DNA from: Massilia sp. erpn
Lineage (GTDB): Bacteria > Pseudomonadota > Gammaproteobacteria > Burkholderiales > Burkholderiaceae_D
DNA: 64,000 nt
NCBI RefSeq assembly: GCF_024400215.1
Contig: NZ_CP053748.1
Location: 3,100,001-3,164,000, forward strand
Reading direction: 5' to 3'
Both the position numbers and the translations under genes were made by a program. Positions 38,029 through 46,247 of this stretch are shown piece by piece (positions within the stretch are counted from its first letter, which is position 1; the number at the start of each line of letters is the position of its first letter). Below the pieces are notes generated by a model. It was given only the letters and a program-made list of their open reading frames with translations. It had not been told where the DNA came from and made no database searches.

Positions 38029-38805
38029 ATGCCACTGCAAATGTCCATGATTCTCTTCAATGAGAAGCCTGTATTTTCTGTCGAAGCTTTGCAAACCAGT
38101 CTGTCAAGCAATTGGCCCGAGCTTGCACATATCTCAGATATTTCCGAGCAGGCAGATACGCTGTCGTTTCGTTTAGATATGGCAGATATCGTGATTGGAA
38201 CGATGCCAGCGCCCATTCCCTGGTCGGACTTGGAGGGGCCATGTGCAAGCAGCCGGCTTTGGCCTGATGCGGCATCTGCCGTACGGGAGCACAAGAGTCA
38301 CGCGATCGTCACTGTGAGCGGCGAACTGCTTCCGGTGCCACTTTCCACGCTGCTCACGCAAGTCACGGCAGCGCTGATGGCCTCGACGCCCGCATCAATG
38401 GGGGTCTTCTGGACCAATGCCACCTTGCTTGTGCCGCAGAGTCTATTTGCCGACTTCGCCGTCGAAGTCCTGCCTTTGGCCCCACCATTGGCCATTTGGG
38501 TCGACTGCCGTGTGGGATGGCTTGAGGGAACCTCCCTCAGTGCGGGCTTTACCACCGGCTTGGCCGAACTTGGGCTGATGGAATTGGAAGCGCATGGAGC
38601 GACAGAGTCGCCGGCCGAGCTCAAGAAGCGATTCGACGCGATCGCTGAATACCTCCTGGAAAATGGCCCGGTCATCCAGGATGGCGATACCGTTGGCGAA
38701 AGCGCCAGCGAAAAGATTCGCATTGTGTATTCCAACTCAATCTTTGGCGCAAAGGACAAGGTTATGCGGCTCGTCTACGAATCCGACTCAGAAGGGAGCG
38801 CTTGA
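38029..38805 (+). CDS. DUF4261 domain protein
   Basis: A 258-residue cytosolic protein of the DUF4261 family; function unknown. Recognisable segments are ADIVIGTMPAPIPWSDLEGP, HKSHAIVTVSGE and PPLAIWVDCRVGWLEGTSLS, with GFTTGLAELGLMELEAHGA in the middle of the domain. The base composition is less GC-rich than neighbouring genes and codon choice is less biased. It sits right beside the tRNA gene with no visible partner, which suggests recent acquisition. No strong ribosome site is seen; an in-frame ATG at 38041 is an alternative start. Confidence 0.8.
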   Translation: MPLQMSMILFNEKPVFSVEALQTSLSSNWPELAHISDISEQADTLSFRLDMADIVIGTMPAPIPWSDLEGPCASSRLWPDAASAVREHKSHAIVTVSGELLPVPLSTLLTQVTAALMASTPASMGVFWTNATLLVPQSLFADFAVEVLPLAPPLAIWVDCRVGWLEGTSLSAGFTTGLAELGLMELEAHGATESPAELKKRFDAIAEYLLENGPVIQDGDTVGESASEKIRIVYSNSIFGAKDKVMRLVYESDSEGSA

Positions 38806-38944
38806 AGCGCCGGTCTTGAGAGCCTAGGGCGGTGCTTTGCTTCCTTGTTTGCCTGATCTTTCTGACAAATTGTTACAAGGAAACATGTGGCAGGTTTCCA
38901 GAAAATCATTTATAACAGGCAAACCTTTCATAGTAGGAGATGTA

Positions 38945-39424
38945 ATGAGCATTGCCGCAAATGTGATTCGTGCCGCGCTGGGTGCTGTTTTGGTGCTGGG
39001 AACCGGTTCCGCGATGGCGCAGATGTCGCGCGCCGTGACGGCTTCGGACAAGATTTCGATCGGCACCATGTCCATCGTCGCAGCGCCGGTTGCCAGCGTG
39101 GCGGGCAGCGCTCATGGCAGCGAGGGCGCCTCGGTCGGCGTGGCGGCGGTGGGCGTGGGCAGCGCTTATGTGGTCTCGGGCATCGCCCAGGGCGTGGGCG
39201 ATACGGTGGAGATTCTGCTGTCGGCCGTGGGTTCGGCGGGTAAGCTGTCGGTGAAGGTCACGGGCAAGACGCTGGGCGCGATCGGCGTGTCGGTCGGCAC
39301 CTCGGTGCAGGTGCTGTCGGAGACGACGGGCACGGTGCTGGTGGCATCGGGCAAGGTGCTGGCCTTTATTCCCAATGAGATCGGCCAGGCGCTGCTGAAT
39401 CAGAGCCGCTTGCCGGCCAACTGA
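38945..39424 (+). CDS. Small exported Ala/Gly/Val/Ser-rich protein
   Basis: A 159-residue protein of unknown function. A signal peptide ends LGTGSAMAQ around residue 23. The mature part is very rich in Gly, Val, Ser and Ala with alternating short hydrophobic runs (SVGVAAVGVGSAYVVSGIAQ, then TGKTLGAIGVSVGTSVQVLS), which could be membrane-associated or amphipathic. AGGAG before the ATG at 38945 fixes the start. The DUF2145 gene begins 9 bp later, so the two probably form an operon and act together in the envelope. Confidence 0.8.
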   Translation: MSIAANVIRAALGAVLVLGTGSAMAQMSRAVTASDKISIGTMSIVAAPVASVAGSAHGSEGASVGVAAVGVGSAYVVSGIAQGVGDTVEILLSAVGSAGKLSVKVTGKTLGAIGVSVGTSVQVLSETTGTVLVASGKVLAFIPNEIGQALLNQSRLPAN

Positions 39425-39433
39425 GGCTGAGCC

Positions 39434-40237
39434 ATGAATTTCGCCACACGTGTCGCCGCCTGCGCGCTGATCGCCGCGGCTTTTGCCGCGCCGGCCCAGG
39501 CCGGGCAGTCCTGCGAAGACCGGCCGATGACGCCTGCCGCGCTGAGCGAGGCGATGGGAACGGGCCGCATGCTGATGGGCGAGTTGAACGACTCCGGCAG
39601 CGATGTGGTGCTGATCGGGCGGCAGGGACAGGATTTGTCCAAGTACCGCGTGAAGTACACGCACCTGGGCATCGCCTTCCGCGCCGCGCCGAATCAGCCT
39701 TGGCGCGTCTACGAACTGCTGAACGAATGCGGCACGGCGCAATCCGAGTTGTGGATGGATGGCCTGGCCAACTTCTTCCTCGACGATCCGTTTACGCTCG
39801 ATTCCATCATGCTGGTGCCGCCGCCGCGCGTGGCCGCCCGCCTGGCGGAGTATCTGCGTTCGCCGGCGCTGCTGCATGGCCTGCACGAGCCTAAATACAA
39901 TATGGTGGCTTATCCATTCTCCACCAAATACCAGAACTCGAACCAGTGGGTGCTGGAAGTGGTGGCGGCGGCCATGTCGAGCGATGTGAAGGTGCAGAAC
40001 CGCGAGCAGGCGCAGAGCTGGCTGAAACTGGCGGGCTATGAGCCGACCGAGCTGCATATCGGGCCGCTGACGCGTTTGGGCGGCCGCATCGTCAAGGCGA
40101 ATATCGCGTTTGACGACCATCCAAGCGCGCTGCGCTTTTCCGACCGCATCAACGCGGCGACGGTCGATTCCATCACCGCCTTCCTGCGCAAGCGCGACGA
40201 GGGCTGGAAGATCCGCGAACTGCGCGGCAAGCGCTAG
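39434..40237 (+). CDS. DUF2145 exported protein
   Basis: A 267-residue periplasmic protein of the DUF2145 family. A signal peptide ends FAAPAQA at about residue 23. Conserved family segments are KYTHLGIAFRAAPNQPWRVY, YELLNECGTAQSELW and PKYNMVAYPFSTKYQNSNQW. The pattern of a Cys, an early conserved His (YTHLGI) and Asn/Gln-rich strands looks like a papain-like or NlpC/P60-like fold, but this is only a suggestion. It is co-transcribed with the small exported protein upstream. Confidence 0.85.
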   Translation: MNFATRVAACALIAAAFAAPAQAGQSCEDRPMTPAALSEAMGTGRMLMGELNDSGSDVVLIGRQGQDLSKYRVKYTHLGIAFRAAPNQPWRVYELLNECGTAQSELWMDGLANFFLDDPFTLDSIMLVPPPRVAARLAEYLRSPALLHGLHEPKYNMVAYPFSTKYQNSNQWVLEVVAAAMSSDVKVQNREQAQSWLKLAGYEPTELHIGPLTRLGGRIVKANIAFDDHPSALRFSDRINAATVDSITAFLRKRDEGWKIRELRGKR

Positions 40238-40243
40238 GCGCTT

Positions 40244-41284
40244 TCAGGATTGTGCGGGCAGCGCCGCCATGGCGCTGCGCACATAGGCCAGCATCTCGGG
40301 CTTCATCCAGGTGCCCGTCAGCAGGACGGGTTGCTCCTGCTGCGCCCTGCGCATTTTCGCCTGCGTCTGCGGATTGTCTCCGGCATAGGCGCGGAACAGG
40401 GCTTGCCATTCGCCGGCCAGCGCCTGCGCAGCGGGAGCGCTTGGCGCGGTGTCCGCATCCATCTGCCGCTGCACGCGGGCGATCAGGTCCAGCCACTTCT
40501 CCCGATTGCGGCCACTGTTGGCACGCAGGTGCTGCAATTCTTCCGCATCCAGATAGCGCGCATAGATGGCGAGCTTGAAGGCGGAGAACGCGGCCATTAC
40601 ATACGCCGTCACTTCCGGCGTGACGCCGGTCAGATACTGGATGCCGGCGTCGCCCGCCATCATGGCGGCGATGCGGGCTGCAGTGGCGGGGTCAGACGCC
40701 GTATCCTTTTCCAGCATTTCCATCCAGCGGCGCGCCAGCGCCTGCGACGTTTTGCTTTCCGCTGCTTGGCCTTCGGCCATGGCGCTGCGCACCTGCGCCA
40801 CCAGTTGCGCCCAACTGCGGTTGCGCTGCCTGTCCTGCGGCTGGAAGGGCAGGCGCGCCAGTTCCTCCTTGCTGAAATACTTGTCGTACACCGCCATCAG
40901 CTCCATGGTGCGCAGCCAGCTGGCCAGCTCCGGCGCTTCGCCTTCCTGCAACTGGTCTTGCAACTGCTTGAGGCGGCGGCGCAGCAGGCTGGCTTGCTCG
41001 ATCTGGTGTTCCAGCGCCTCGATCTGGCGCGCCACCGTGTCGGCCAGCGGATGGGCGGGATCGTCGAGCATGGCGGCGATATCGCTCAGCGCGATGCCGA
41101 AGCGGCGCAGCGCCTGGATCTGGTGCAGGCGCGCGACGTCGTCCACGTTGTACAGGCGGTAACCGGAATCGGAACGGGCCGATGGCTTCAGCAGGCCGAT
41201 GCTGTCGTAGTGGTGCAAGGCGCGCACGGTCAATCCCGTGCGCTTTGCCAGCTCGCCGATTTTGAGGGCGGTGTTGTCGCTCAT
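40244..41284 (-). CDS. MerR-family regulator with two tandem TipAS-like domains
   Basis: A 346-residue transcription factor. The N-terminal MerR winged helix is clear: LKIGELAKRTGLTVRALHHY, then YRLYNVDDVARLHQIQAL. A coiled coil runs at about 78-114. Two successive copies of a TipAS-like ligand-binding domain follow at about 134-236 (DKYFSKEELARL, SWAQLVAQVR, ALARRWMEML) and 242-340 (ARYLDAEELQHL, KWLDLIARVQ, ALAGEWQALF). TipAS in Streptomyces TipA binds thiopeptides and other peptides. The gene starts 4 bp after the methyltransferase stop. Both should be driven by the MerR-type promoter at 42542-42572, making it autoregulated. Confidence 0.88.
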   Translation of the reverse strand: MSDNTALKIGELAKRTGLTVRALHHYDSIGLLKPSARSDSGYRLYNVDDVARLHQIQALRRFGIALSDIAAMLDDPAHPLADTVARQIEALEHQIEQASLLRRRLKQLQDQLQEGEAPELASWLRTMELMAVYDKYFSKEELARLPFQPQDRQRNRSWAQLVAQVRSAMAEGQAAESKTSQALARRWMEMLEKDTASDPATAARIAAMMAGDAGIQYLTGVTPEVTAYVMAAFSAFKLAIYARYLDAEELQHLRANSGRNREKWLDLIARVQRQMDADTAPSAPAAQALAGEWQALFRAYAGDNPQTQAKMRRAQQEQPVLLTGTWMKPEMLAYVRSAMAALPAQS

Positions 41285-41288
41285 GGTG

Positions 41289-42509
41289 TCAGGTGAAAGC
41301 GCGCAGCAGGCGCGTGGTGCCGCCCAGGCGCAAGCCGTCGCTGCGGCCGGACAGATAACGTTCGCTCAATTGCCCGGCTGCGAAGTGTTGGATATGGTGG
41401 AACCCAAGCTGGCGCAGGCGCGCTTCCAGCTGCTCCGGAACGAAGTGGCAACGCCACGGTTCGCCCTGAGCGGCAAGGCGGGCGCCGAACATCTGCATGG
41501 CGCTGCGTTCCATTGCACTGAGCAGCTTGGGATCGAGCAGGTAATCGAACACGATGCTGCTGCCCGGGGCGCTTTGGGCGATAGTGGAGAGGGTTTGCAT
41601 GACCTCATCTTCGCATAGATACATGCTGACGCCCAGCCAGGAGAAGAAGGCGGGCTGCTCCCAGCTGAAGCCTGCCGTGCGCATGGTTTCATGCAGATTC
41701 TGGCGGGCGAAATCGACCGCGATGAAGCGCAATCCCTGCGGCTCGCTCATGCCTGCCGCGTGCAGGCGTTCGCGCTTCCATTGCTGCACGCCGGGCAGGT
41801 CCACCTCATACACGGCGGCTGGCGCTGGCAGCTTGCCGCGCCAGGCCGAGGTGTCGAGGCCCGCGCCGAGGATGGCATACTGGCTCACGCCTTGCTCTTG
41901 CGCGGCGTGCCAGCAGTCCTCGGCCAGCCGGCTGCGTACGGCAATGGTGGTGCGCATGACGGCGGCTACCGGATTGTCGTATTGCTGCGGATTGGCGCGC
42001 AGCGCGGCCTCGCCATCGGGGCCGAGGATTGTGAGGGCGAGTGGATCATCCAGGATCAGCGGCTGGTCGAGCAGCTGGTGCGCGGCGCGCAGATGGGCGA
42101 CCGAGAGGGCGCTGGGCTTGGGGCCGGCCACTTGCATGGCGCCGGCCGGCAGGGGCTGGTGCAGGTGGAGCAGGGCGTGGCGCATGAAGTCCCTCACTTG
42201 CGGACCGATGTGGGCGGAGAGGCCTGGTTCGCGTTCATAGGCGAAGCGGACCTTGGCATCCAAGGCGGCGTCGCTGCCGGCATGCGAGCTGCGGAACAGG
42301 GTAGCCCAGCGCATAGCCAGCACGGCGGCGGCGTCATCCTGGGGCGACATGTAATTGGCGATGGCGTGGGCGGCGTCGTCCAGCAGTTGCTGCCAATCGG
42401 CGGCGTGGGCCAGGGCGCGCTGGCGCACATCTTCCATCTCGCTGGGAGTCAGGTAGGACGCCAGCAGGGATAGGCGCGCTTGAATCGTCTCGATGGTATC
42501 TGTTTGCAT
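41289..42509 (-). CDS. TipAS-like domain fused to a leucine-carboxyl-type SAM methyltransferase
   Basis: A 406-residue fusion. Residues about 17-115 (ASYLTPSEMEDVRQ, DWQQLLDDA, AVLAMRWATLFRSSHAG) align by eye with both TipAS copies of the neighbouring regulator, closest to the second. Residues about 130-406 form a class I methyltransferase of the LCM/Ppm1 type: the region starts SVAHLRAAHQLLDQPLILDD, then SAM loop YAILGAGLDTSAWR, acidic strand VYEVDLPGVQQWK and FFSWLGVSMYLCEDEV. Members methylate carboxyl or hydroxyl groups of small molecules or proteins. ATG 42509 follows AAGGAAG; longer upstream frames run into alkA and are not used. Role inferred: ligand-induced modification of a compound that the TipAS domain binds. 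Confidence 0.85.
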   Translation of the reverse strand: MQTDTIETIQARLSLLASYLTPSEMEDVRQRALAHAADWQQLLDDAAHAIANYMSPQDDAAAVLAMRWATLFRSSHAGSDAALDAKVRFAYEREPGLSAHIGPQVRDFMRHALLHLHQPLPAGAMQVAGPKPSALSVAHLRAAHQLLDQPLILDDPLALTILGPDGEAALRANPQQYDNPVAAVMRTTIAVRSRLAEDCWHAAQEQGVSQYAILGAGLDTSAWRGKLPAPAAVYEVDLPGVQQWKRERLHAAGMSEPQGLRFIAVDFARQNLHETMRTAGFSWEQPAFFSWLGVSMYLCEDEVMQTLSTIAQSAPGSSIVFDYLLDPKLLSAMERSAMQMFGARLAAQGEPWRCHFVPEQLEARLRQLGFHHIQHFAAGQLSERYLSGRSDGLRLGGTTRLLRAFT

Positions 42510-42541
42510 GCATCTTCCTTTCCGGGACAGTGAATGCAAAC

Positions 42542-42572
42542 AGCGTAAAGCCTGACGTGGCGTGAGGGTCAA
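42542..42572 (-). promoter_or_regulatory. MerR-type promoter of the TipAS methyltransferase operon
   Basis: On the minus strand TTGACC (42572-42567) and TACGCT (42547-42542) are separated by 19 bp, the stretched spacer typical of promoters activated by MerR proteins. The spacer holds the operator at 42551-42567. Transcription would start about 26 bp before the methyltransferase ATG. The -35 box overlaps the alkA stop codon. Confidence 0.65.
42551..42567. promoter_or_regulatory. TipA-like operator in the promoter spacer
   Basis: On the minus strand CCTCACG-CCA-CGTCAGG is a 7-3-7 inverted repeat with one mismatch. It closely resembles the CCTCACGTCACGTGAGG operator of Streptomyces tipA (from memory), and lies between the -35 and -10 boxes. 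Confidence 0.6.
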
Positions 42573-43474
42573 GCACTCTCGTTGGGGCGGTCTTTCAGGC
42601 TGGCCCACAGGTGGGCGGCGGCCATCGTGCGGTGCGGCTGGTATTGCTGGAGAATGCGCTCGGTGCGCGCGATATCCGGTTTGCTGTCCTCGCCCAGCAG
42701 GCGCTGCAGGGCGGCGCGGACGGCGACATCGCCATGCAGCGAGCAGTCGGCATAACCGTAGCCGCGCAGCAGGCCGTAGTTGACGGTCCATGGCCCGATG
42801 CCCTTCACCGCCAGCAGGGCCTTGCTGATCTCCTCGATGCTGTTATCCGCCGTTTCCTCCAGGCGCAATTCGCCGCTGGCGACAAGGGCGGCGAAGCGCA
42901 GCAGCGTCTCGGCCTTGGCGCGCGAGAATTTTCGGCTGGTCAGATCCTCGGCGCTGAGGCGGGCCGCATCGGCGGCTTCGGGATAGCACCACAAGCCGCT
43001 GGAGTGCTGGCGCCCCGCCTGCAGGATGAAGGTGCGGCGCAGGGCGATGGCGAAGGGCAGGTTGATTTGCTGGCCGATGATGGCCCAGGTCAGCGCCTCG
43101 AACACGGTGGCCGACTGCACGATGCGCAGGCCGGGATTGGCCCGCACCAGTGGGCCGAGCATGGCGTCGTCGCGCGCGAAGTCGAGAAAGGCTTGCGGAT
43201 CGATATGCAGTCCCAGCATATTCCGCGCCGCGTCATGGATGCGTTGCTGGAGCGATGCAGGCCAAGGCTGCTGCGGACAGTCCGCATCGGCCTCGCATTC
43301 GGCGGTGGTAGGTGACAGGTGCAGCGTCAGCGCCACGGCAACGCCGTCGAGCAGCATGCCCTTGCGGATGCGTTCCGGCCGCATTTCCTCCGCCACGCTC
43401 TCCGCATCGCGGCTATGAAAGGCCAGTACATCCTGCAAACGGTAATTGGCCGGCAGTGAAATCGTAAAGCGCAT
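42569..43474 (-). CDS. alkA: DNA-3-methyladenine glycosylase II (AlkA-like)
   Basis: A 301-residue HhH-GPD base-excision glycosylase that removes alkylated purines and pyrimidines from DNA. The N-terminal beta domain of AlkA (about 1-90) is followed by FEALTWAIIGQQINLPFAI and the helix-hairpin-helix AVKGIGPWTVNYGLLRGYGY, with the catalytic Asp in SLHGDVAVRAAL. There is no Ada domain fused in front. ATG 43474 has GGAG 6 bp upstream. A family B repeat cluster lies upstream of the start. The downstream methyltransferase operon has its own promoter. Confidence 0.93.
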   Translation of the reverse strand: MRFTISLPANYRLQDVLAFHSRDAESVAEEMRPERIRKGMLLDGVAVALTLHLSPTTAECEADADCPQQPWPASLQQRIHDAARNMLGLHIDPQAFLDFARDDAMLGPLVRANPGLRIVQSATVFEALTWAIIGQQINLPFAIALRRTFILQAGRQHSSGLWCYPEAADAARLSAEDLTSRKFSRAKAETLLRFAALVASGELRLEETADNSIEEISKALLAVKGIGPWTVNYGLLRGYGYADCSLHGDVAVRAALQRLLGEDSKPDIARTERILQQYQPHRTMAAAHLWASLKDRPNESA

Positions 43475-43507
43475 TCTCATCTCCAACAAATGCGAACCGC
43501 TGAGCCC

Positions 43508-43625
43508 GTGTCCACCTTGGGGTCAGACCCCAAATCGGACACGGACTCAGCCGTTCCATACCCCACAAGCAGAAAATTTGTAGTTGAGTTCGTGTCCGAT
43601 TGGGGTCTGACCCCATGGTGGACAG
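43508..43625. repeat. Family B palindromic repeat, two units
   Basis: Two oppositely oriented units at 43508-43542 and 43592-43625, each with a GGGGTC(A/T)GACCCC centre, flanked outside by TGAGCCC and GGGACTCAGCC. The outer flank of unit 2 supplies the stop codon of the XdhC-like gene (TGA at 43632-43630). Confidence 0.92.
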
Positions 43626-43629
43626 GGAC

Positions 43630-44664
43630 TCAGCCATTGGGCTGGTATTGTGGCGCAGGGGCGGGCGGGGCGCTAGCTGTTTCTTGCGCTGATATGGCGG
43701 CGTGGGGGACTTGCAGGGTGGCGGGGACGCCGTTTTTGACGGCGGTGATTTCGGCCAGAATCGAGATGGCGATTTCGGCCGGGGTTTTGCTGCCGATGTA
43801 CAGCCCTACGGGGCCGTGCAGGCGGGCCAGTTGTGCGGGCGTGAGGTCGAATTGCTGCAGACGTTCGCGCCGCTTGGCATTGTTGGCGCGCGAGCCGATG
43901 GCGCCGACGTAGAAGGCGGGCGATTTCAAGGCTTCCATCAGGGCCAGGTCGTCGAGCTTGGGATCGTGCGTCAGGGCGACGATGGCGCTGCGCGAGTCGG
44001 GCTGCATTTCCAGCACCAGGTCGTCGGGCATGGCGTGGACCAGGGGCACATCGGGCAACTGCCAGCCGGCGCGGTAGTCTTCGCGCGGGTCGCAGACGGT
44101 GACGTGGTAGTCCATGGCGCTGGCGATCTGCGCGAGAAAGCGCGAGAGCTGGCCGGCGCCGATAATGAGCAGGCGCCAGCGCGGGCCGTGCTGGGTCCAG
44201 AGTTCGTCGCCGTGCCGTTCCAGCACGGGGCCGGCGGCGGTGGGAGTCAGCGCCACGGCGCCGGTGGACAGGTGCAGGCGGCGCTGCACCAGGCGGTGCT
44301 GGGCCAGCTGGTCCAGCAGTTCGTCGATGCGGCTGTGGGCGCCCAATGGTTCGAGCGCCAGTTCGATGGTGCCGCCGCAGGGCAGGCCGAAGCGGTGCGC
44401 TTCGTCGGCGCTGATGCCGTAACTGACCAGTTGCGGCGTGCTGCGCGCGATGCCTTCGCGCCGCACGCGCTCGATCAGGTCATCCTCGATGCAGCCGCCG
44501 GAGACGGAACCGACCACACGGCCGTCCTCGCAGATAGCCAGCATGGCGCCGATGGGACGGGGGCTGGAACCCCAGGTCCGCACCACGGTTATCAGTTCGC
44601 AGCGCAGGCCTTGGGCGAGCCAGGCGGCGCTGGTTTTGAGCACTTCGAGGTCGATGCTGTCCAT
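43630..44664 (-). CDS. XdhC/CoxI-family protein
   Basis: A 344-residue protein of the XdhC family, which helps insert sulfurated molybdenum cofactor into xanthine dehydrogenase-type enzymes. The N-terminal CoxI domain includes VRTWGSSPRPIGAMLAICED and VGSVSGGCIEDDLIERVR. The C-terminal Rossmann domain reads LLIIGAGQLSRFLAQIASAM, with VTVCDPREDY and FYVGAIGSRANNAKRRERL. No xanthine dehydrogenase or other molybdoenzyme gene is in the window. The last about 25 residues are an Ala/Pro-rich tail (ETASAPPAPAPQYQPNG) and the stop codon lies in the edge of a family B repeat. Confidence 0.9.
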   Translation of the reverse strand: MDSIDLEVLKTSAAWLAQGLRCELITVVRTWGSSPRPIGAMLAICEDGRVVGSVSGGCIEDDLIERVRREGIARSTPQLVSYGISADEAHRFGLPCGGTIELALEPLGAHSRIDELLDQLAQHRLVQRRLHLSTGAVALTPTAAGPVLERHGDELWTQHGPRWRLLIIGAGQLSRFLAQIASAMDYHVTVCDPREDYRAGWQLPDVPLVHAMPDDLVLEMQPDSRSAIVALTHDPKLDDLALMEALKSPAFYVGAIGSRANNAKRRERLQQFDLTPAQLARLHGPVGLYIGSKTPAEIAISILAEITAVKNGVPATLQVPHAAISAQETASAPPAPAPQYQPNG

Positions 44665-44716
44665 CACGGCACTATACTACGCGGCCGGGCGGGATGCCGA
44701 TCGGGCTTGTATCAGC

Positions 44717-45130
44717 TTAGCGTTTGCGGGCGCAGACGGCTTTCAGGGCGCGCTCGTATCGGCTGCCTTTTTCCACCGCTTCCGCGTCGTAGGATTCGTA
44801 TTTGTAGGTGGCGAGGGCTTCGCCGCGCGCCATCGGCTCGGCGTAGTAAAGCTGCGACATCAGGGTGATGCTGCGCTCTTCGCAGGAATACAGGTGCTGC
44901 TGTTTGACGGAGCGGTAGCTTTTGCCGTCGGGCGCGGTCTGCGTCTGGCGGAAGGATTGCAGCAGCCAGGCTTTGCGGCCGTCCTTGCTGCGCTGGATGC
45001 TGCCGCGCTCCAGATAGAGCGTGCTTTCCTTGTCGCTGCCCAGCTTGCGCAGCGGCACCGCCTGAGCAGCGGCGGGCAGCAGGACGGTCAGCAGCAGGAC
45101 GGAAAGCGCGAGCTGGCCGGAGGTTTTCAT
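44717..45130 (-). CDS. Surface-adhesin E-like small exported protein
   Basis: A 137-residue protein with a signal peptide ending LPAAAQA (about residue 24). The rest resembles the surface-adhesin protein E family: a compact beta protein with STLYLERGSIQRSKDGRKAW, KSYRSVKQQHLYSCEERSIT and a second Cys near the end (AVCARKR) that probably forms a disulfide. Function unknown; assignment by pattern only. It starts 4 bp after the M48-like gene and probably shares its transcript. Confidence 0.75.
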   Translation of the reverse strand: MKTSGQLALSVLLLTVLLPAAAQAVPLRKLGSDKESTLYLERGSIQRSKDGRKAWLLQSFRQTQTAPDGKSYRSVKQQHLYSCEERSITLMSQLYYAEPMARGEALATYKYESYDAEAVEKGSRYERALKAVCARKR

Positions 45131-45134
45131 GATC

Positions 45135-46247
45135 TTAGGGGACGAGCGGACGCTTGCCGGCCTGCTTGGCCTTGATCTCGCCCACGGTCCTGTCGATGGC
45201 GGTGTAGCGCGCCGTGGTGGCGGGATGGACGGCCATATAGCCGTTCAGCACCGAGGCCGGATACTGGGCTGCGAGGCGCTGCCAGAAGGCTTTGGCGCGG
45301 TCGATGTTGTAGCCGGCGCGCGCCAGCATGTACAGCGCGAGCTGGTCGGCCGCCACGTCCATCTCCTGCGGCATGGGCTTGATGCCACCGCTGCCGATCA
45401 GCAGCGAGAGGTCGGGCCGCACGCTGGCGAGGTTGTCGATCATGCTGGCCAGGGAGGCATTCTGGCGCAGGCTGCCGGCGTGGCCCAGCACATTGTGGGC
45501 GATGTCCTTGGCCAGCACGAAGGCGATGGCTTCGTCGCTTTGCGCGAAGCTGATCATGCCGCGCGTGAGCAGCACGCGCGAGCCGTCGGCGTAGGAGTTG
45601 ATATTGTCGGCGTTGCCCAGGTCGACGCGGTAGGCGCAGGCGCGGGTCACGGGCATGTTAAGCACCTGTTCGCGGCCGTTGCGCGAGATGGTCATGCTGA
45701 GCGAGGCGCGGCTGGAGACCAGCGGGCCAAGCACGCCGGCCGCTTCGGTTTCGGCATCGCGGCCGGTGGGCAGGGTCTTGCCGTTGGCGGCGACCAGGCC
45801 GTCGCCCTTGCGCAGGCCGGCGCTGGCGGCGCCGCTGCCGGCCAGCACACCCGATACTTGGAGGCGGTCGTTATAGCCGAGCACCGCGCGCGCGGCATCG
45901 GCGTATTCGCCCGGGTAGGAGTATTTGTTCTTGGCGGTGAAGCCGAGCAGATTGCGCGCCTGGGTTTTGCACAGGTCGGCGTTGTTGATCAGCAGGGGGG
46001 CCGCCACGCGGTACAGGCGGTCCTGCAGCGAGACCATGGTTTTCAGGGTGTCCTGGGCGGCCAGCATACGCGGCGTGAGCACCGGCGCGGTTTCGGCCGG
46101 CGGCGCGGCAGGGGCGGGCGCCTGGCTTGCCGGAGCCTGGGGCTGGAAGGTGGAGCAGGCCGATAGGAGCAGGGAGGCTGCCGCGAGTGAGATAACCGGC
46201 CTTGCGGCCCGTACGATCCATTCAAGCTTGTTCTTCCCTGCTGCCAT
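45135..46247 (-). CDS. M48-like lipoprotein with PDZ region and degenerate active site
   Basis: A 370-residue lipoprotein. The signal ends LLLSA before Cys31, followed by a Pro/Ala linker. A PDZ-like segment (about 128-200, VLAGSGAASAGLRKGDGLV) interrupts the usual layout, and an M48-type protease region follows. The HExxH zinc site of M48 (LAHEIAH) is here LAKDIAH (residues 246-251 region): the first His is Lys and the catalytic Glu is Asp. The downstream ExxAD ligand motif is DVAAD (297-301). It is therefore probably catalytically dead, perhaps a scaffold or chaperone like BepA-type proteins. ATG 46247 follows GAGGACAGG. Confidence 0.82.
   Translation of the reverse strand: MAAGKNKLEWIVRAARPVISLAAASLLLSACSTFQPQAPASQAPAPAAPPAETAPVLTPRMLAAQDTLKTMVSLQDRLYRVAAPLLINNADLCKTQARNLLGFTAKNKYSYPGEYADAARAVLGYNDRLQVSGVLAGSGAASAGLRKGDGLVAANGKTLPTGRDAETEAAGVLGPLVSSRASLSMTISRNGREQVLNMPVTRACAYRVDLGNADNINSYADGSRVLLTRGMISFAQSDEAIAFVLAKDIAHNVLGHAGSLRQNASLASMIDNLASVRPDLSLLIGSGGIKPMPQEMDVAADQLALYMLARAGYNIDRAKAFWQRLAAQYPASVLNGYMAVHPATTARYTAIDRTVGEIKAKQAGKRPLVP

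What the first reader, a model, noticed from the sequence alone, without database searches (positions are those of the whole stretch)
41289..42509. Methyltransferase carrying the same drug-sensing (TipAS-like) domain as its own regulator
The first ~115 residues of this LCM/Ppm1-type methyltransferase align by eye, without long gaps, to both TipAS-like domains of the MerR protein encoded 4 bp downstream (shared pattern YL..E....R, W..L, LA..W..LFR, K.R.A..EP). A sensor domain shared between regulator and enzyme suggests that the enzyme docks or modifies the inducing ligand, giving an inducible detoxification or resistance module for a peptide-like compound. I know of no described system of this form.
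Basis: partly seen in the sequence, partly recalled or inferred. Interest (0 to 1): 0.78.

Follow-up and report, generated by a model that had tools for sequence, protein, structure and literature searches.

The report
Drug-sensing domain fused to methyltransferase
A Massilia-like bacterium carries a two-gene switch in which a drug-sensing type of regulator stands behind a methyltransferase that itself holds half of the same kind of drug-binding domain, and some relatives keep a fatty-acid enzyme changed at a known antibiotic-resistance site in the same slot, so it looks like an undescribed inducible antibiotic-defence module.

Summary
Window 41289-42509(-) encodes an AlbA/TipAS-type half-domain (residues ~5-119) fused to an LCM/TIGR00027 methyltransferase, 4 bp before a MerR protein with two such repeats (an AlbA homologue). 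The domain is not a recent copy from that regulator (AU p=0.0015); it fits best as a remnant of a ~630-aa one-chain family MerR-repeat1-repeat2-methyltransferase (69 of the 120 best-scoring relatives). A MerR-type promoter (19-bp spacer, dyad CCTSACG-N3-CGTSAGG) stands before the methyltransferase in 33 of 33 regulator-linked loci (31 of them used to read the motif) and before 19 of 21 fusions, against 10 of 117 lone methyltransferases and 0 of 880 shuffles; the exact dyad occurs once in the 6.15-Mb genome. In 62 of 62 related regulator loci the operator is present; in five it is displaced by an inserted gene, a methyltransferase (2) or a second accD (3). Six such accD copies (one beside a broken regulator) have Ser at position 203, the site of an andrimid-resistance change. 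Best reading: an inducible resistance locus with an exchangeable effector; here the effector methylates (inferred) the anionic drug that the sensor detects. Ligand and reaction are untested.

The parts
41289..42509 (-). TipAS/AlbA half-domain fused to LCM/TIGR00027 methyltransferase, 406 aa (P0001)
42153..42482 (-). AlbA-type repeat 2 (residues 10-119 by own HMM); keeps AlbA W133, W162, R181 (3 of 8 listed C-terminal-half contacts)
41295..42119 (-). methyltransferase domain (residues 131-405) with LGAGLDT (214-220), invariant in the 119-row alignment A2
40244..41284 (-). MerR regulator with two AlbA-type repeats, 346 aa (P0002): HTH region 7-113, repeat 1 129-233, repeat 2 237-342
42551..42567 (-). 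operator dyad CCTCACG-CCA-CGTCAGG; only exact match of CCTSACGNNNCGTSAGG in the genome
42542..42572 (-). MerR-type promoter: -35 TTGACC (42572-42567), 19-bp spacer, -10 TACGCT (42547-42542)
42569..43489 (-). alkA-like ORF (name recalled from reading the sequence, not scanned against families; start uncertain), the upstream flank also found in relatives; its stop overlaps the -35 box

Best explanation
An inducible resistance locus with an exchangeable effector. Shown by sequence: an AlbA-type MerR regulator and a methyltransferase lie in one operon behind a MerR-type promoter whose long spacer holds the family's dyad operator; in relatives the same operator stands before the regulator alone, before an accD copy, or before methyltransferase plus accD. 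Inferred: the regulator dimer sits on the dyad, binds a small aromatic/anionic antibiotic in its two-repeat tunnel, activates the promoter, and so makes more of itself (which also sequesters the drug) and of the methyltransferase. The methyltransferase then caps an acidic group of the same drug (carboxylate or enolate) with a methyl group; its repeat-2 domain, which keeps two tryptophans and the anion-holding Arg, captures or presents the drug's anionic end. The Ser203 accD copies suggest that the drug, at least in those relatives, is an andrimid/moiramide-type inhibitor of the acetyl-CoA carboxylase carboxyltransferase.
For: Fold and homology. One-chain fusions in 69 of the 120 listed relatives and a MerR-repeat gene beside the enzyme in 33 of 176 fetched loci. 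Operator before 4/4, 29/29 and 19/21, against 10/117 lone enzymes and 0/880 shuffles; in 62/62 regulator loci; exact dyad once in the own genome. Slot exchange, in part at one site behind alkA. Second accD in the slot in 6 loci, Ser203 in 6/6. M203L is stated as required for andrimid resistance (PMC5209532, passage); moiramide B binds as anionic enolate (PMC13151354, passages). AlbA R181 pairs with albicidin's carboxylate (PMC6078987 section 8); Arg there in 121/121 P0002-like regulators, 68/90 fusions, 20/25 headless fusions, 17/18 repeat2-enzymes. The isolated AlbA C-terminal half still binds albicidin, Kd 0.6 uM. T2 domain dN/dS 0.32 against L033.
Against: No reaction, substrate or ligand was tested. 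Related methyltransferases in the same slot lack the T2 domain, so it is dispensable there. T2 dN/dS (0.32) is about twice that of the enzyme domain (0.15). Of the 62 other regulator loci only 2 have the methyltransferase and 3 an accD behind the operator; 57 have neither, so most such regulators act without them. The R181 equivalent is Arg in only 12 of the 18 regulators fetched beside methyltransferases. P0002 keeps 11 of 18 listed AlbA contacts but not N75, H78 or Q205, and the enzyme's repeat keeps 3 of 8, so albicidin itself is doubtful. The isolated AlbA half-domain bound albicidin but did not protect cells. Thr203 occurs in 6 of 26 single accD copies checked, so a change at 203 alone does not prove a resistance copy. 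The window genome has no accD in the slot. The six accD copies are 82-100% alike to L160's, so they are probably one origin.
Confidence: 0.55

Rival explanations
1. The methyltransferase modifies a compound that the bacterium or its neighbours make as a metabolite or signal (tailoring or quorum role), and the regulator senses that compound; no resistance is involved.
For: No known resistance gene was recognised beside the pair, reading the ORFs of 38500-45500 by eye. TIGR00027 enzymes are of mostly unassigned function (recalled).
Against: No biosynthetic cluster recognised in the same stretch, by eye; the slot alternates with an accD copy bearing Ser203; AlbA, the closest solved sensor, is an antibiotic-binding protein.
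Confidence: 0.2
2. The enzyme acts on a protein (LCM enzymes of eukaryotes methylate a C-terminal carboxylate), for example the regulator or the drug target, and its T2 repeat is a docking surface for the regulator's repeats.
For: Fold of the LCMT1/PPM1 group; shared repeat type.
Against: Methyltransferases before such regulators without T2 (23 loci, 19 after removing identical enzymes); closest solved relatives are the mycobacterial Rv0731c/ML2640 proteins.
Confidence: 0.12
3. The T2 domain of this enzyme is a leftover of the fused ancestor with no ligand role; the enzyme works as the T2-less ones do. (Compatible with the best explanation in all but the role of T2.)
For: Enzyme nested among fusions in the tree; T2-less sisters; higher dN/dS than the enzyme part and loss of AlbA W195.
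Against: dN/dS still 0.32; W133 and W162 kept in 18/18 and R181 in 17/18 repeat2-enzymes.
Confidence: 0.35
4. Chance similarity: the N-terminal segment is another helical domain.
For: Pfam TipAS does not call it.
Against: Shuffle test, AlbA sequence and structure matches, continuous alignment with fusions.
Confidence: 0.01

Closest known systems
AlbA of Klebsiella oxytoca (albicidin-binding MerR protein)
   Same: MerR head plus two TipAS-like repeats; P0002 matches AlbA over both repeats (E 3e-47); palindrome in a 19-bp spacer promoter before albA (PMC10189885, passages).
   Different: No enzyme or accD partner mentioned in the passages read; N75, H78, Q205 differ in P0002.
TipA / SkgA / Mta class of MerR regulators
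   Same: Sensor domain class and release by antibiotic binding (PMC7762955, title, start of abstract and passages).
   Different: One TipAS domain, not two (recalled); that paper does not contain the word methyltransferase.
TIGR00027 / LCM methyltransferases (Rv0731c, ML2640, LCMT1, PPM1)
   Same: Enzyme domain and fold.
   Different: Those solved ones are not fused to a drug-sensing repeat or a MerR head; substrates of the bacterial ones unknown (recalled).
AdmT (andrimid self-resistance AccD copy)
   Same: Second accD as protective effector, changed residue 203 (PMC5209532 and PMC6269866, passages).
   Different: Ser, not Leu; under the operator of an AlbA-type regulator; resistance not tested; found only in relatives, not in the window genome.

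Membership tests
AlbA-type MerR regulator (P0002) | MerR HTH followed by two TipAS-like repeats aligned to AlbA | tested here: met
   tree group with AlbA, support 96
AlbA-type MerR regulator (P0002) | tunnel residues that contact albicidin | tested here: inconclusive
   11 of 18 listed contacts identical; of N75, R181, Q205 only R181 kept
AlbA-type MerR regulator (P0002) | palindrome in a 19-bp spacer promoter | tested here: met
   sequence only, no binding assay
AlbA-type MerR regulator (P0002) | binds albicidin | not testable with these tools
   needs a binding assay
TipAS/AlbA repeat in the enzyme (P0001) | fold of an AlbA repeat | tested here: met
TipAS/AlbA repeat in the enzyme (P0001) | Pfam TipAS score over the curated cut-off | tested here: not met
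   no hit at E<=10; some close relatives, such as P0007, do carry the Pfam call
TIGR00027 / LCM methyltransferase | score over curated cut-offs | tested here: met
   TIGR00027 178.3 against 93.55; PF04072 149.2 against 22.3
TIGR00027 / LCM methyltransferase | SAM-dependent methyl transfer | not testable with these tools
   LGAGLDT invariant in 119 rows; no assay
AdmT-like resistant accD (relatives only) | second accD beside a housekeeping copy, changed residue 203 | tested here: met
   5 of 5 genomes of L160-L162, L193, L196 have both, and G148 too; Ser203 in 6 of 6 slot copies
AdmT-like resistant accD (relatives only) | confers andrimid resistance | not testable with these tools
   needs an enzyme assay

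The most novel reading that the evidence does not exclude
A new resistance principle: one sensor family controls a chromosomal slot in which bacteria exchange target bypass (Ser203 accD) and drug methylation, and in many Burkholderiales sensor, transcription switch and drug-modifying enzyme are one polypeptide, so that the regulator both detects and destroys its inducer, probably an acetyl-CoA carboxylase inhibitor whose anionic dione is O-methylated.
Probability: 0.3. Interest if true: 0.85.

Novelty: new variant of a known kind. Interest (0 to 1): 0.7.

Why it matters
It would add drug methylation to what AlbA/TipA-class sensors control, give an enzyme-sensor-switch fusion in one chain, and offer a sequence-only handle (operator plus slot) for finding unknown resistance effectors. 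The Ser203 accD copies give a concrete first drug class to test for a sensor family whose ligands are mostly unknown (recalled).

Tried and rejected
Recent copy of the regulator's own repeat into the enzyme: rejected (AU p 0.0015). The wider constraint, window-type enzyme repeats with all regulator second repeats, was not rejected (p 0.073), so only the recent-copy form is excluded. The T2 tree has 115 columns for 94 rows, 42 of 91 inner branches open; the branch joining the enzyme's T2 with fused T2 has support 81 only. All trees are 'quick' IQ-TREE runs on samples: 92 of 254 distinct enzyme domains, 72 rows of 255 two-repeat regions, 94 rows of single repeats.

A single-sequence structure model was useless (pLDDT 37); it was redone with 119 sequences.

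Paper searches for the system: TipAS+methyltransferase+MerR gave 2, neither relevant by title and start of abstract; TIGR00027+methyltransferase gave 1, on Bacillus genome editing; leucine carboxyl methyltransferase+antibiotic resistance+MerR gave 0; MerR+methyltransferase domain+fused+ligand-binding domain gave 2, irrelevant by title; MerR family+methyltransferase+O-methylation+detoxification+antibiotic gave 0. 'Undescribed' means not found by these five searches in this library of open papers. Liu, Fortin and Walsh 2008 on AdmT is not held; its content is known here only through passages of PMC5209532, PMC6269866 and PMC13151354. PMC12857756 was listed for M203 but its held part does not contain it.

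Sampling limits: the 120 listed relatives are the best 120 of 1978 hits by similarity to the full protein (and only 7997 candidates were scored), so they favour fusions; some entries without a MerR head come from short contigs and may be truncated. The 176 methyltransferase loci are those returned under caps (80 best of 554; at most 30 per search), with flanks of about 1.5 kb or up to 6 kb. Identical enzymes were removed only in the second count (162). The operator counts are not corrected for relatedness. The fusions, the lone enzymes and 60 of the 62 regulator loci are (L163 and L165 lie in the genomes of L014 and L010). The 0/880 null used letter shuffles of 300-bp stretches. The 26 further accD copies are the best-scoring ones, not a random draw. 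The 121 regulators are P0002 and the 120 listed of 3090 hits.

Script searches failed; one search gave the tree.

Full report
WHAT IS THERE. On the minus strand the window has an alkA-like ORF (43489-42569; name recalled from reading, not scanned), a promoter, a 406-aa methyltransferase (42509-41289) and, 4 bp on, a 346-aa MerR protein (41284-40244).

THE REGULATOR IS AN AlbA HOMOLOGUE. P0002 matches AlbA over both repeats (E 3e-47). It keeps 11 of 18 listed albicidin contacts, among them W27, W56, W133, W162, Y169, R181 and W195, but not N75, H78, Q205 (contacts from PMC6078987 section 8, read in full).

A WIDER FAMILY. Of the 120 listed best relatives of the enzyme (of 1978 hits; the query included), 69 are one chain MerR-repeat1-repeat2-methyltransferase (~630 aa), 28 lack the MerR head, 18 have only repeat 2, and 5 are bare enzymes (own HMMs). 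Named sources include Janthinobacterium, Burkholderia, Cupriavidus, Trinickia and Paludibacterium. In 176 fetched methyltransferase loci: 116 enzyme alone, 29 enzyme next to a MerR-repeat gene (23 before it, 6 after it), 21 fusions, 5 repeat1-repeat2-enzyme, 4 repeat2-enzyme before a regulator (the window, L033, L188, L189), 1 next to a MerR head only; after removing identical enzymes, 162: 111, 25, 18, 4, 3, 1.

ORIGIN. In the enzyme tree (92 sampled rows) all 24 fusions lie in one 63-row group (support 99), with the window's enzyme and the Duganella enzymes that stand before regulators inside it in a 26-row group (99). The window's regulator instead belongs to the stand-alone AlbA-type group (96, with AlbA), apart from the fusions' regulators (92). 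The enzyme's repeat groups with the fusions' repeat 2 (81, weak); a clade of the window-type enzyme repeats with the repeat 2 of their own regulators is rejected (p 0.0015), while a clade with all regulator second repeats is not (p 0.073). Most parsimonious, not proven: a fused ancestor lost its MerR head and repeat 1, and the rest was paired with a separate AlbA-type regulator; in sister enzymes repeat 2 was lost too.

REGULATION. Before the enzyme lies TTGACC-19 bp-TACGCT (42572-42542) with the dyad CCTCACG-CCA-CGTCAGG. The same arrangement (TTGANCCTSACG-N3/4-CGTSAGG, at most 3 mismatches of 18, within 300 bp) stands before 4 of 4 repeat2-enzyme loci, 29 of 29 enzymes linked to a regulator, 19 of 21 fusions (the other two have 4 mismatches), 2 of 5 repeat1-repeat2-enzymes and 10 of 117 lone enzymes (the MerR-head-only locus counted here), against 0 of 880 shuffled stretches. 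The motif was read from 31 of those 33 linked loci, so the fusions and the regulator loci below are the independent tests. In the own genome the exact dyad occurs once, here; five other sites have one mismatch; the backward control pattern gave one site.

THE SLOT. One search lists 65 P0002-like matches in 245 family genomes: the window's, one fusion, and 63 genes in 62 loci, all of which I had as loci (L159-L187, L241-L273). All 62 have the operator; in 57 it lies directly before the regulator, in 5 it is displaced by an inserted gene: methyltransferase in 2 (L163, L165), a second accD in 3 (L160-L162). In L193 and L196, from the genus search, both stand in the slot: operator, methyltransferase, accD, regulator. 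The alkA-like gene flanks the window-type, methyltransferase-type, accD-type (L160, L193, L196) and empty forms (20 of the 62 loci; tblastn), so in these it is one chromosomal site with exchangeable content; it was not found in L161 and L162.

THE accD COPIES. The five genomes of L160-L162, L193 and L196 each have a housekeeping accD (416-423 bits) plus the slot copy (373-390 bits, cut-off 317). Where 12 of 12 housekeeping copies compared (the window genome's included) have Met in DPTMGG, 5 of 5 slot copies have Ser; by alignment to 2f9y_B this is E. coli AccD position 203. A search of 294 family genomes found two strong accD copies in 4 (G089, G148, G192, G203); all four second copies have the operator, Ser203 and a regulator, which is broken in L282 (G148). 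Of the 26 next-best single copies, 20 have Met and 6 Thr, none with operator (at most 2 mismatches) or regulator in the locus. PMC5209532 calls M203L required for andrimid resistance (passage); PMC6269866 describes AdmT (passage); PMC13151354 says that moiramide B binds as an anionic enolate and that AdmT is a duplicated accD (passages). The window genome itself has one accD over the cut-off.

MECHANISM. Shown: sensor type, gene order, operator, slot exchange. Inferred: ligand-induced activation, by analogy to AlbA and TipA (PMC10189885 and PMC7762955, passages). Inferred: the enzyme methylates the inducing drug. Reasons: AlbA R181, which pairs with albicidin's carboxylate, is Arg in 121 of 121 P0002-like regulators, 68 of 90 fusions (His in 17), 20 of 25 headless fusions and 17 of 18 repeat2-enzymes, though in only 12 of 18 regulators fetched beside methyltransferases; W133 and W162 are kept in 18 of 18 repeat2-enzymes, while W195 is Gly in 89 of 90 fusions. 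An albicidin derivative without its terminal carboxyl is only moderately active (PMC8580050, passage), so capping an acid group is a plausible inactivation. The enzyme's single repeat could still bind: the isolated AlbA C-terminal half has Kd 0.6 uM, though it did not protect cells. dN/dS against L033 is 0.32 for the repeat and 0.15 for the enzyme part (NG86): constrained, but less so.

VERDICT. Observation confirmed; interpretation partly right. It works like an AlbA/TipA-type inducible resistance module, with a new enzyme effector and, in relatives, a one-chain fused form. Interest 0.7.

Noticed in passing
L160-L162, L193, L196, L282: Second accD with Ser at E. coli position 203 under the same operator as AlbA-type regulators; L193/L196 carry it behind the methyltransferase; the regulator in L282 is broken.
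   Followed up: partly
fused proteins (90 rows): AlbA W195 is Gly in 89 of 90 one-chain fusions but Trp/Phe in 120 of 121 P0002-like regulators (Trp in 12 of 18 fetched beside methyltransferases): a change tied to the fused form.
   Followed up: no
L254 (G182): Two AlbA-type regulator genes close together on the same strand.
   Followed up: no
L018, L019, L147, L148, L015, L017, L050, L200, L206, L207: Methyltransferases with the operator (at most 3 mismatches) but no regulator in the fetched flank: possible regulation from a distance.
   Followed up: no
L285, L287, L289-L291, L307: Single accD copies with Thr at position 203, possibly natural insensitivity to andrimid-type drugs.
   Followed up: no
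L210-L214 (own genome): Five one-mismatch operator-like dyads elsewhere in the window's genome; genes beside them not examined.
   Followed up: no
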